From the IMG/VR virus record IMGVR_UViG_3300033816_000522, positions 1-44,451 of that record: a stretch of DNA of 44,451 bases; one strand, 5' to 3'. This DNA is from a virus. This document shows positions 150 through 4,532 of the stretch, piece after piece; the stretch's first letter is position 1, and every line of letters starts with the position of its first letter. The notes under the pieces are model-generated. The model worked only from the letters and a program-made list of their open reading frames with translations. It searched no databases and was not told the origin of the DNA. The translations under genes and the position numbers were made by a program.

Positions 150-692
150 TTGCTTGTCACCTTCAGTGAGTTTGCAGCGATCAAGGGCTGCGCGAAGGGA
201 ACCGTGACGGCTGCCAGCAAGTCCCGCATTGCTGCTGCGGTGGTGGAGAAGGACGGCAGAAGGTGGCTGGATCGCGACCAGGCGCTCGAGCTGTGGAACC
301 GGAACACCAAGGCGACCCACAACGCGAAGGTGAGCCAGGCCGACCCGATCGAGGCCCCGGCACCGCGCACCCCGGTGGAGTTGAAGCGCGCGATCGAGGC
401 GCTGCCCGACGATGCGATCCCCGAGCTGAACGAGAGCCGGGCACGGCGGGAGCACTACCAGGCCGAGCTCAGCAAGCTACAGGTGGCGCAGCAGCGCCGC
501 GAGCTGGTGCCGGCCGAGGAGGTGAAGAAGGACGCCTTCCAGGTGGGCCGGAGCATCCGCGAAGCGCTGAGCAACCTGGCGGACCGGCTGAGCCACCAGC
601 TGGCCGGCGAGACCGACCCTGCGGTGATCCACCAGCTGCTGAGCGATGAGCACCGTGACGCGCTGCTGTCGCTGCAGGAGGCAGGGCTGTGA
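150..692 (+). CDS. Terminase small subunit (Nu1-like)
   Basis: This 180-aa protein is the likely DNA-recognition subunit of the packaging motor. The N-terminal part (about residues 4-30, TFSEFAAIKGCAKGTV) looks like the winged HTH of Nu1-type small terminases. The rest is a charged helical region with a run of Q, R and E residues (about 100-125), followed by a C-terminal helix expected to contact the large subunit. The start is a TTG at 150 with AGGAG at 134-138. The stop overlaps the GTG start of the large subunit, indicating translational coupling. It lies directly downstream of the genome junction and the octamer array, as expected for a cos or pac-binding protein. Assignment rests on position, size and the HTH pattern. 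Confidence 0.8.
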   Translation: MLVTFSEFAAIKGCAKGTVTAASKSRIAAAVVEKDGRRWLDRDQALELWNRNTKATHNAKVSQADPIEAPAPRTPVELKRAIEALPDDAIPELNESRARREHYQAELSKLQVAQQRRELVPAEEVKKDAFQVGRSIREALSNLADRLSHQLAGETDPAVIHQLLSDEHRDALLSLQEAGL

Positions 693-2557
693 GCGTCTGG
701 CGCACGGCGTTCATGGACGGGCTGCGCCCCGAGCCCCCGCTGACGGTGAGCGACTGGGCGGACAAGCACCGGCGGCTTAGCAGCAAGGCAAGCGCGGAGC
801 CGGGACCATGGCGCACGAACCGGACCCCGTACCTGCGCGAGCCGATGGACTGCCTGAGCACCACCAGCACGGTGCAGCGGGTGGTGATGATGTTCGCGGC
901 GCAGACGGGCAAGACCGAAAGCGGCAGCAACTGGCTGGGCTACGTGATCGCACACGCGCCGGGGCCGATGCTGCTGGTGCAGCCGACCGTGGAGATGGCG
1001 AAGAGGCTGAGCAAGCAGAGACTCGAGAGTCTCATCACCGAGACCCCGATCCTCGCGGAGAAGATCGCGCCGAGCCGCTCGAGGGACTCGGGCAACACGA
1101 TGTTTTCGAAGGAGTTCCCAGGCGGGATGATGCTGCTGACCGGCGCGAACAGTGCCACCGGCCTGCGCTCGACACCGTGCCGGTACATCTTCTGCGATGA
1201 GGTGGACGCCTTCCCGCTGGACGTGGACGGCGAGGGCGACCCGGTGAGCCTTGCCGAGAAGCGGGCCACCACCTTTGCGCGGCGCAAGATCCTGCTGACC
1301 AGCACGCCGACCGTGAAGGATTTCAGCCGGATCGAGTCGGAATATGAGCGCAGCGACCAGCGGCGCTTCTTCGTGCCGTGCCCCTGCTGCGGGGCGATGC
1401 AGTGGCTGAAGTGGCCGCAGCTGAAGTGGGAGAAGAACGACCCGGCCACCGCGGCCTACGAGTGCGAGGTGTGCCACGAGCGGTTCGCCGAGATCCACAA
1501 GCCGGCCATGTTGCGGAAGGGCGAGTGGCGCGCGACGGCCCCGAGCGACGGCAAGACAGCAGGCTTCCAGCTGTCGGGGCTCTACAGCCCGCTGGGCTGG
1601 CTGAGCTGGGCGGACATGGTGGACGACTTCCTGCGGGCGAAGACCGACGCGCCGATGCTGAAGAGCTTCGTGAACACGCGGCTGGCCGAGACGTGGGAGG
1701 AGGACTTTGCCAGCAAGGTGAGCGCGGATGCGCTACTGGAGCGGTGCGAGGCCTACCAGTCGGGACAGCTGCCTGAGGGTGCGCTGGCGGTGACGATCGG
1801 TGTGGACGTGCAGGGCGGCGGCGGCTCAGCGGGTGACCGGCTGGCGGTGAGCGTGTGGGCCTGGGGCCGCGAGGAGGAGGGCTGGCTGGTGGACCACCAG
1901 GAGATCTTCGGCGACCCGTGCCGGCCGGAGGTGTGGAAGCAGCTGGACGTGCTGGTGCTGCACGAGTGGGAGCACGCGAGCGGCGCGAAGCTGCGGGCGG
2001 ACGTGGTGGCGATCGACTCGGGCGGTCACGCGACGGCGGAGGTTTACCAGTACGCGCGGGAACGGCAGGCGGTGGGCGTGATCGCGATCAAGGGCCAGAG
2101 CCAGAGAGGCAAGGCGCCGATTGGCAAGGCGAGCAAGGTGGACATCAACGCGCAGGGGCGGACGCTGAAGCGCGGCGCGCAGGTGTTCCCGGTGGGCGGC
2201 GACACGATCAAAACCACGCTGTTCGGGCGGCTGAAGCACAACGAACGCGGGCCGGGCTACCTGCACTTCCATGCGCAGACGGGCGGCGACTATTTCGAGC
2301 AGCTGACGGCCGAGAAGCAGGCGCTGCGGTACGTGAAGGGCTTCCCCGTGAGGGAGTGGGTGAAGAAACCAAGCGCGCGTAACGAGGCGCTGGATTGTCT
2401 GGTGTACAGCTACGCAGGCCTGCACAGGCTCTATCAGAAATTCGATCGACGCAGCATCTGGGATCAGTTCGAGCGTCGCCTGCAAGATGCGCAGGAAGGC
2501 AAGGCGCAGAAGCGGGTCAAGGCGCAGCGTGGAACTTCGTTTACGACGCAGTGGTAG
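689..2557 (+). CDS. Terminase large subunit (GpA family)
   Basis: This 622-aa protein is the ATP-driven packaging motor and nuclease. The ATPase P-loop is AAQTGKTE (residues 70-77), and CDEVDAF (about 169-175) is the Walker B. A Cys pair cluster (CPCCG ... CEVC, about 230-265) is typical of the GpA family. The C-terminal nuclease is suggested by GVDVQGG, AIDSGGHAT and NEALDCLVY. The length matches lambda gpA (about 640 aa). The GTG start at 689 overlaps the terS stop. It is followed not by the head-tail joining gene, as in lambda, but by a foreign-looking cassette at 2541-3965. Confidence 0.95.
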   Translation: MSVWRTAFMDGLRPEPPLTVSDWADKHRRLSSKASAEPGPWRTNRTPYLREPMDCLSTTSTVQRVVMMFAAQTGKTESGSNWLGYVIAHAPGPMLLVQPTVEMAKRLSKQRLESLITETPILAEKIAPSRSRDSGNTMFSKEFPGGMMLLTGANSATGLRSTPCRYIFCDEVDAFPLDVDGEGDPVSLAEKRATTFARRKILLTSTPTVKDFSRIESEYERSDQRRFFVPCPCCGAMQWLKWPQLKWEKNDPATAAYECEVCHERFAEIHKPAMLRKGEWRATAPSDGKTAGFQLSGLYSPLGWLSWADMVDDFLRAKTDAPMLKSFVNTRLAETWEEDFASKVSADALLERCEAYQSGQLPEGALAVTIGVDVQGGGGSAGDRLAVSVWAWGREEEGWLVDHQEIFGDPCRPEVWKQLDVLVLHEWEHASGAKLRADVVAIDSGGHATAEVYQYARERQAVGVIAIKGQSQRGKAPIGKASKVDINAQGRTLKRGAQVFPVGGDTIKTTLFGRLKHNERGPGYLHFHAQTGGDYFEQLTAEKQALRYVKGFPVREWVKKPSARNEALDCLVYSYAGLHRLYQKFDRRSIWDQFERRLQDAQEGKAQKRVKAQRGTSFTTQW

Positions 2558-3295: not shown

Positions 3296-3695
3296 TCAGC
3301 TGGTCATACCCGATTACGTGCTAGAAGCGGTGTTCATTGCCGGTGGAAAGAAGTCAAAGCGTGGACCACAAGTGAAGTGCGGCATGTTTTTTACAGACCA
3401 TGCTCAACTTGACTTTGAAGGTAAGCCTGACACCATTACGGACGACAAACTGAGCGAGATGTTCGCTTCCGGCGACTTCACGCACACTGTGGGCGTAAAG
3501 GTGGGCATGGCCAAAGTGATGCGCACACGGCCGATCTTTCGCCGGTGGAGCCTTGATGCCACCGCGCACTTTGATCCTGACGTTCTGAACCTTCGCGACA
3601 TCGAGGAGGTGGCTGCCGATGCTGGCAAGCTGGTCGGCATTGGCGACTGGCGTCCCAAGCATGGGCGGTTCAGCGCTGGCATCCGAGAGGTGTAA
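3099..3695 (+). CDS. Unassigned phage protein downstream of HNH
   Basis: This 198-aa protein is read from GTG 3099 (MSNLTQIQISITG); a TTG at 3075 would add 8 residues. Neither start has a clear ribosome site, so the choice follows the domain start. Notable segments are GESPLLCHNGQTADP, a Lys/Arg-rich helix (KAMKAVSSKRKKTDSDYEE), LEWLAGLY and GDWRPKHGRF at the end. I recall related phage proteins annotated only as hypothetical and can assign no function. It ends 10 bases before the start of the pentamer-repeat region at 3706, and may be functionally tied to that RNA or DNA. Confidence 0.75.
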   Translation: MSNLTQIQISITGESPLLCHNGQTADPRNAYAKAMKAVSSKRKKTDSDYEEMARLEWLAGLYRFRDQLVIPDYVLEAVFIAGGKKSKRGPQVKCGMFFTDHAQLDFEGKPDTITDDKLSEMFASGDFTHTVGVKVGMAKVMRTRPIFRRWSLDATAHFDPDVLNLRDIEEVAADAGKLVGIGDWRPKHGRFSAGIREV

Positions 3696-3705
3696 GTCCA
3701 GATCT

Positions 3706-3921
3706 GGTTTGGCAGGGCTGGGCGCGTTCCTGCGTGGCGGGGTAGGGCCAGGCGCGGTGGGGCATGGCGGGGTCGGGCTGGGCAAGGGCCACAGACGGTG
3801 GCACGGAGGCTTCGGCCTCCCTGCCCCCCTCACAAGGGTGGACAAGGCCGGGTTAGGCGAGTTTTTGGCAGAACACCGCATGGCTGGGCGAGTTCAGGCC
3901 TGGCGAGGCAAGGCATGGACC
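3706..3921 (+). repeat. Period-5 (GGYNN)n non-coding tract with hairpins
   Basis: From 3706 to 3790, 17 consecutive pentamers keep one phase: GGTTT GGCAG GGCTG GGCGC, then 3726 GTTCC, 3731 TGCGT, and GGY/GGG units to 3786. Fifteen of the 17 begin GG, while the last two bases vary freely. A second tract runs at 3846-3865 (4 units) and, after a one-base shift, at 3867-3921 (11 units, 8 with GG). The UUCG hairpin at 3805-3820 lies between them. A period of five with variable spacers is neither codon structure nor slippage, so the triplet positions look selected. Function is unknown. Confidence 0.8.
3805..3820 (+). other. UUCG tetraloop hairpin inside the pentamer region
   Basis: GGAGGC-TTCG-GCCTCC is a perfect 6-bp stem with the very stable UUCG tetraloop. 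No T-run follows, so it is not an ordinary terminator. It separates the two pentamer tracts and supports the idea that the region works as folded RNA. Confidence 0.7.
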
Positions 3922-3934
3922 CACTTCGGTGGGT
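3919..3934 (+). other. Second UUCG tetraloop hairpin at end of pentamer tract
   Basis: ACCCAC-TTCG-GTGGGT is a second perfect 6-bp stem with a UUCG loop. It lies at the downstream edge of the pentamer tract, 31 bases before the next start codon. It overlaps the GGTACGATT box at 3932-3940. No T-run follows. Confidence 0.7.
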
Positions 3935-3965: not shown

Positions 3966-4532
3966 GTGAACATCCCCGCGCAGATCAGGGCCGGCGACAC
4001 GATCCGCTGGCGGGACGTTCCGGGCCGCGACAACCTCGGCAATGCGATCGATAGCAGCTGGACGCTCACCTACTACCTGCGCACCAACACCAACCACGAA
4101 GGCGCGACGGTGGTGGGCACGGCCTACGGGACCGGGTGGGAGTTCCTGATCGCGCAGGGCACCAGCGCGGGCTTCGACGCAGGGCAGTGGTACTGGCAGG
4201 CCGAGGCCAGGAAAAGCGGCGAGCATGTGACCCTCGGGGCCGGGCAGCTGACGGTGCAAGCTGGGCTGAACTACACGGGCCAGCCGGCGGCATTTGACGG
4301 CCGCAGCCAGGCGCAGAAAGACCTCGACGCGGTGCAGGCGGCGATCCGCTCGATCATCTCCGGCGGTGCGGTGGCCGAGTACACGATCGGCAGCCGGCGG
4401 CTGAAGAAGATGGAGATGGCCGATCTTCTGGCGCTGGAATCTAAGCTGAAGGCCGAGGTTAAGCGGGAACAAGCGGCTGCAATGGTCGCTAACGGCCTGG
4501 GTAACCCACACAACCTGTTCGTGCGGTTCTGA
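3966..4532 (+). CDS. Head-tail joining protein, gpW-like with extra N-terminal domain
   Basis: The chosen start is GTG 3966, preceded by AGGTGGG at 3951-3957; in-frame TTG 3939 and ATG 3915 lie upstream but inside the repeat/hairpin region. The 188-aa product has a beta-rich N-terminal domain (residues 1-100, starting NIPAQIRAGDTIRW, with GQWYWQAEARKSG). The C-terminal part (about 105-188) has the layout of lambda gpW: QAQKDLDAVQAAIRSII, a tyrosine-containing turn, then MEMADLLALESKLKAEVKRE. gpW itself is only about 68 aa, so this appears to be a fusion. It sits just upstream of the portal gene, as W does in lambda, and its stop overlaps the portal start. Confidence 0.7.
   Translation: MNIPAQIRAGDTIRWRDVPGRDNLGNAIDSSWTLTYYLRTNTNHEGATVVGTAYGTGWEFLIAQGTSAGFDAGQWYWQAEARKSGEHVTLGAGQLTVQAGLNYTGQPAAFDGRSQAQKDLDAVQAAIRSIISGGAVAEYTIGSRRLKKMEMADLLALESKLKAEVKREQAAAMVANGLGNPHNLFVRF

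What the first reader, a model, noticed from the sequence alone, without database searches (positions are those of the whole stretch)
3706..3921. Strict five-base GGYNN tract: a possible RNA scaffold for a ring-shaped binding protein
Thirty-two pentamer positions in three phased blocks (3706-3790, 3846-3865, 3867-3921) mostly start GG plus C or T, while the two spacer bases vary. Coding would give a 3-base period and slippage would keep the spacers constant, so selection on the triplets is the simplest reading. The region also has two UUCG hairpins, so it probably acts as RNA. TRAP of Bacillus binds (G/U)AG triplets spaced by two or three bases around an 11-subunit ring, a logic very close to this. 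Alternatives are two-layer G-quadruplexes or DNA binding every half helical turn. I know of no named element like it.
Basis: partly seen in the sequence, partly recalled or inferred. Interest (0 to 1): 0.82.

Follow-up and report, generated by a model that had tools for sequence, protein, structure and literature searches.

The report
Phage guide-RNA array in mobile cassette
The odd five-base repeat is a pair of guide RNAs of VIPR, a phage system described in 2026 that resembles CRISPR, and comparison with sister phages suggests that here it sits in a mobile DNA cassette whose last guide is aimed at the spot where rival phages lack the cassette.

Summary
The tract is real (24 of 32 pentamers are GGY; lag-5 GG pairs 25 versus 9.8±2.8 in shuffles). 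It follows a phrog_4652 gene, and 79 of 80 IMG/VR homologues carry such tracts there. The protein is a Vipr: it matches solved SUSP1 Vipr (36pp, E=1.7e-75) and its model folds like Csm3/Cas7. So this is a VIPR vrRNA array (PMC13142463). GGY is scaffold and NN is the guide. The published 1-nt-skip rule is reproduced: 34/165 guides match related phages at ≥70%, versus 1-4 for controls.

Apparently new: an HNH gene accompanies vipr in 80/80 loci and 0/175 empty sites. The cassette sits between terminase and head-tail genes. Array-terminal guides mostly target DNA beside the insertion site. In nine cassette/empty sibling pairs the replaced flank ends at or just beyond that target (2-79 nt past its centre), and the bearer usually matches less. 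The window's guide 2 fits rival terminase (12/14 units) better than its own (6/14). This points to a mobile, self-sparing, probably homing cassette. Not shown: transcription, binding, cleavage, guide 1's target. The preprint's supplement could not be read.

The parts
689..2557 (+). terminase large subunit gene (upstream flank of the cassette)
   Evidence: Pfam GpA_ATPase and GpA_nuclease
2401..2557 (+). 3' end of terminase that differs from the empty-site sibling L089 (62% identity inside, 97% outside): co-converted flank
   Evidence: changepoint 157 nt before TerL end
2438..2479 (+). own counterpart of the guide 2 target; only 6 of 14 units match, 12 of 14 in L094
2729..3295 (+). HNH endonuclease ORF (exact start uncertain), overlapping the start of vipr; candidate accessory or homing nuclease
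   Evidence: PHROGs HNH families; present in 80/80 vipr loci; conserved Cys and His residues
3099..3695 (+). vipr gene (PHROG 4652), RAMP protein
3690..3700 (+). conserved leader GTGTAAGTCCA before the first guide
   Evidence: recurs in relatives
3701..3785 (+). vrRNA 1 repeat region, 17 units counting the degenerate first one; NN = CT TT AG TG GC CC GT GG AG CA GC GG AT GG CG TG AA
3786..3843 (+). vrRNA 1 3' tail with covarying hairpin (about 3797-3828, UUCG loop 3811-3814)
3846..3916 (+). vrRNA 2 repeat region (array-terminal guide), 1-nt slip near 3866; NN = CG TA GA TT AG AC AT TG GA CA CT GA AA AT; reads terminase codons of rival phages
3919..3934 (+). terminal hairpin ACCCAC-UUCG-GUGGGU, the different 3' end of the last unit
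   Evidence: sequence; recurs in relatives
3966..4532 (+). head-tail joining gene (downstream flank), probable GTG start
   Evidence: PHROG 5774; identity to L089 resumes about 50 nt into it

Best explanation
The tract is a two-guide VIPR array next to a Vipr (RAMP) gene. Shown by sequence: the GGY units are a conserved scaffold, the NN dinucleotides vary freely, and they match DNA of related phages only when one base is skipped after each NN. Inferred from the preprint: Vipr subunits line up along the RNA and the NN pairs read double-stranded DNA. In this cyanophage-like clade the HNH-vipr-array unit is a cassette inserted between packaging and head genes. Its last guide is usually aimed at the gene end next to the insertion site in relatives, and in most pairs the cassette carries its own, less matching version of that gene end. 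Most likely mechanism: in a co-infected cell the Vipr-guide complex, probably with the HNH nuclease, attacks the empty site of a rival phage, and repair from the carrier copies the cassette with its resistant flank. That cleavage and repair step is inferred (about 0.5 on its own); the VIPR identity alone I put at about 0.97.
For: VIPR identity. Skip rule: (34 guides at 70% or better and 17 at 80% or better with skip 1; shuffles and other skips 1-4 and 0-1). The skip base falls on the codon wobble on either strand, open in 39/39 best targets. Guide 2 target: 116 contigs versus 1 for the reversed pattern, 131 places in TerL, own site spared. Cassette: HNH in 80/80 vipr loci; 175 empty sites without HNH. 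Terminal guides have hits in 31/51, others in 8/113, p=5e-13; best targets of 30/39 guides lie within 500 nt of the junction, null 14%. Breakpoints of the replaced flank lie 2-79 nt beyond the target centre in nine bearer/empty pairs; empty-empty pairs rarely show such a drop, 0/143 and 1%. HNH-vipr 96% identical between W, L002 and L003 while portal genes are 74-85%.
Against: No transcription, binding or cleavage data. Guide 1 has no convincing target. Guide 2 has several non-GGY units and a 1-nt slip, and its matches are not perfect. Own and sibling scores differ by only one unit in L006, L010 and L018. By a fairer rank test over all homologues, sparing is only a tendency (mean percentile 0.37; own near the top for L042, L044, L052, L080). 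The target database was built around these genes, so targets elsewhere were not sampled. The HTJ-targeting class has no close siblings to test. Several bearers are related, so the nine pairs are not nine independent events.
Confidence: 0.8

Rival explanations
1. VIPR plus linked rescue without cutting: the last guide represses the rival's terminase or head gene, and only recombinants that carry the cassette together with the resistant gene end survive. Transfer is ordinary homologous recombination; the HNH gene is a passenger or has another role.
For: The preprint shows transcriptional silencing, not cutting, for type II (PMC13142463). Selection would also keep the resistant flank next to the guide.
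Against: Ordinary recombination should leave breakpoints at any distance beyond the target; here they sit 2-79 nt past its centre. HNH is present in 80/80 cassettes.
Confidence: 0.33
2. Plain VIPR warfare: guides silence competitors, and the position of the cassette next to its targets is incidental or a convenience of local sequence.
For: Hypervariable first guides look like a changing arsenal, as in the preprint.
Against: Positional clustering of terminal-guide targets and the link between target and breakpoint.
Confidence: 0.15
3. Structural RNA scaffold for a TRAP-like ring or other regulatory protein, with meaningless spacers.
For: Periodic conserved triplets.
Against: Spacers match DNA of relatives by the skip-1 rule; the neighbouring protein is Vipr.
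Confidence: 0.01
4. Repeat-derived coding sequence or slippage repeat.
For: A 107-residue ORF crosses the tract.
Against: Guide replacement between near-identical loci and a phase slip; spacers at nearly 2 bits of entropy.
Confidence: 0.01

Closest known systems
VIPR systems, type II, Escherichia phage SUSP1 (PMC13142463; PDB 36pp)
   Same: Homologous Vipr (37% identity), GGY/NN tracts of similar length, structured 3' tail, 1-nt-skip matching with the skip on the codon wobble
   Different: No vap1-like gene beside vipr but an HNH gene; array-terminal unit with a different 3' end; last guides aim at genes flanking the insertion site of relatives rather than satellites or lysogeny switches; mobile cassette with co-converted flanks
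VIPR types III-V with nuclease or helicase vap genes (PMC13142463)
   Same: A predicted nuclease next to vipr
   Different: The preprint places types III and V in defence islands; this is a phage packaging/head module. The type could not be assigned without the supplement
Phage free-standing homing endonucleases, intronless homing (PMC2988022, PMC6083498; abstracts and own knowledge)
   Same: Nuclease gene beside the site it should attack, empty sites in relatives, carrier site altered, co-conversion of the flank
   Different: Target choice appears to be set by a guide RNA; cleavage not shown
Cas7/Csm3 of class 1 CRISPR
   Same: RAMP fold (Foldseek E about 2e-5)
   Different: Single small protein, no CRISPR array, non-contiguous guide
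TRAP of Bacillus
   Same: Triplets spaced by two bases
   Different: Different protein, different triplet, different purpose

Membership tests
VIPR | Vipr protein, an ancestral RAMP | tested here: met
   36pp SUSP1 Vipr E=1.7e-75 by profile and 9.5e-30 by single sequence; Csm3/Cas7 fold
VIPR | vrRNA of about 9-16 YNNGG units with conserved GGY | tested here: met
   17 and 14 units in the window, several degenerate; commonest length 13 in 186 unique tracts
VIPR | hypervariable NN | tested here: met
   Entropy 1.96 and 2.00 bits at NN; 0.56, 0.92 and 1.20 at GGY; guide 1 replaced between loci with 97.5% identical vipr
VIPR | structured, invariable 3' tail | tested here: met
   Covarying hairpin in internal units; pseudoknot not resolved; the last unit ends differently
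VIPR | DNA targets by the 1-nt skip rule | tested here: met
   by sequence only
VIPR | accessory vap gene | tested here: inconclusive
   HNH gene in 80/80; vap1-like phrog_5926 not found in the window, but that search had no positive control
VIPR | vrRNA transcribed, bound by Vipr, binds and represses DNA | not testable with these tools
   needs RNA-seq and biochemistry
Homing element | empty sites in close relatives | tested here: met
Homing element | recognition site near the insertion, altered in the carrier | tested here: met
   difference weak in L006, L010, L018
Homing element | co-conversion of the flank | tested here: met
Homing element | site-specific cleavage that drives transfer | not testable with these tools
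   needs biochemistry and co-infection
TRAP | TRAP protein and (G/U)AG triplets | tested here: not met
   Triplets are GGY and the neighbouring protein is a RAMP

The most novel reading that the evidence does not exclude
RNA-guided homing: the HNH-Vipr-vrRNA cassette uses its last guide, read by the non-contiguous code, to attack the empty site in sibling phages, and spreads by repair together with a recoded, guide-resistant gene end. This would be a natural counterpart, in phages, of a cleave-and-rescue gene drive.
Probability: 0.5. Interest if true: 0.93.

Novelty: new variant of a known kind. Interest (0 to 1): 0.82.

Why it matters
It independently reproduces the 1-nt-skip code in a phage clade not named in the preprint's main text, and gives natural targets: terminase, head-tail and portal-like genes of sibling phages. 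If the homing reading holds, VIPR is not only a weapon but a way for a cassette to copy itself into rivals at a site chosen by a guide RNA, with immunity built in. That would link CRISPR-like targeting to selfish gene drive, and it can be tested directly.

Tried and rejected
Coding repeat: a 107-residue ORF crosses the tract, but NN replacement and the phase slip argue against a conserved protein. Known RNA family: no Rfam match. Promoter/terminator consensus: none. TRAP, G-quadruplex and half-turn DNA binding do not account for skip-1 matches. Guide 1 target: three viral scans gave 1, 1 and 2 contigs, no better than the reversed guide 2 control with 1; the best, L167 (12/17), has a stop in the wobble frame; 23 genome hits are taxonomically scattered; a 3-mismatch search in 47 records was at control level. 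Self-sparing as a universal rule: not supported by the rank test. The 'HNH end to vipr start' distances reflect my truncated query and are not used. The L002/L115 upstream breakpoint (64 nt) comes from a short upstream stretch and was left out of the correlation.

Full report
OBSERVATION. The GGYNN tract is present at the stated place and is far beyond chance. 24 of the 32 listed pentamers are GGY. It is unique in the window. It starts right after a 199-residue ORF of PHROG 4652, of unknown function in that library, between terminase and a head-tail joining gene. The window is a 44,451-base virus record. The nearest named packaging-gene relatives include Synechococcus siphophages S-CBS1, S-CBS3 and S-LBS1, so a picocyanobacterial host is likely but inferred.

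WHAT IT IS. 79 of 80 IMG/VR homologues of the ORF carry GGYNN tracts just downstream on the same strand, mostly two to four and up to eight per locus. Over 186 unique tracts the two variable positions have 1.96 and 2.00 bits of entropy, the first two fixed positions 0.56 and 0.92. The window and L002 have 97.5% identical vipr genes but share only 3 of 13 units of the first guide, while the second is identical. A literature search found VIPR (PMC13142463): a Vipr RAMP protein and vrRNAs of GGY/NN units whose NN pairs read DNA with one skipped base. Membership was tested here. The protein matches solved SUSP1 Vipr (36pp) and SUSP1's own gene at 37%; its AlphaFold model (pLDDT 88) has Csm3/Cas7-type proteins as top structural hits. 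Internal vrRNAs have a hairpin tail with strong covariation.

THE CODE. Shuffled guides and skips of 0, 2 or 3 gave 1-4 and 0-1 (first pass). The skipped base sits on the codon wobble position whichever strand is read, and the frame is open in 39 of 39 best targets. This is an independent test of the published rule, by sequence only.

THE WINDOW'S TARGETS. Guide 2 reads the terminase codons for R-Y-D-(R)-R-T-I-W-D-Q-L-E-K. An exact 9-unit pattern is found in 116 viral contigs, the reversed pattern in 1. Among held loci 131 matches lie in TerL on the coding strand; 112 of them also match three further upstream units that were not in the query; none has vipr in the stretch held. L094 matches 12 of 14 units, the window's own TerL 6 of 14; one of the differences is a synonymous arginine codon. 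No target for guide 1 was found.

THE CASSETTE. An HNH ORF lies directly upstream of vipr in all 80 loci, with conserved Cys and His residues. 175 relatives without vipr have no HNH, and their terminase and head-tail genes are adjacent in all but one. S-LBS1, S-CBS1 and S-CBS3 show the same empty arrangement. Window, L002 and L003 share about 96% identical HNH-vipr but only 74-85% identical portal genes, and each has a different, closely similar cassette-less sibling. So the same cassette has entered different backbones, or been lost from them, at one site.

LAST GUIDE, INSERTION SITE AND BREAKPOINTS. Array-terminal guides have targets in the held data far more often than others (31/51 and 8/113), and 30 of 39 best targets lie within 500 nt of the junction (null 14%). 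In nine bearer/empty pairs the flank next to the cassette is replaced up to a point just past the target centre: target +355, breakpoints 374, 369, 378; +127, 129 and 147; +189, 195; about -96, 157, 148 and 178 nt upstream. Cassette-less pairs of like divergence show no such drop in the portal-like gene (0 of 143) and rarely in terminase (1%). Siblings match the guide better than the bearer in all of these pairs, but by one unit only in L006, L010, L018 and L003. Some bearers are related, so these are not nine independent events.

READING. Shown: a VIPR array, skip-1 matching, a cassette with HNH, and flanks that change at the guide's target. Inferred: transcription, protein-RNA assembly, DNA attack, cleavage by HNH and homing. 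Simple recombination with selection for a resistant target remains the main rival. I could not read the preprint's supplement, so I cannot say whether its authors saw this clade or these targets; 'homing' and 'terminase' do not occur in its main text. I found no paper on RNA-guided intronless homing of this kind in the library searched, which holds only part of the literature.

Noticed in passing
L082:2880-3170 (Gordonia phage MakoManhole) and L085:3650-4020 (Mycobacterium phage LittleE): After their GGYNN tracts the 3' tails look like the acceptor and T arm of a tRNA (for example GGTGGGGTTCGACTCCCCACCCGAGC), which could be a processing signal.
   Followed up: no
window 3786-3843, and tails: Internal vrRNA tails hold four short segments of which each is complementary to the next, so two exclusive folds are possible (three small hairpins, or one long hairpin).
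   Followed up: partly
L068: The one vipr locus of 80 with no GGYNN tract in the short stretch held downstream (about 200 nt).
   Followed up: no
L102:2659-2865: GGYNN tracts about 7 kb upstream of the terminase gene, away from the cassette site; possibly another VIPR locus.
   Followed up: no
L027:2615-3211: The vipr reading frame contains one stop codon in this contig.
   Followed up: no
L082-L085: Named phages with this Vipr carry a phrog_5926 gene directly after vipr, matching the position of vap1 in SUSP1.
   Followed up: partly
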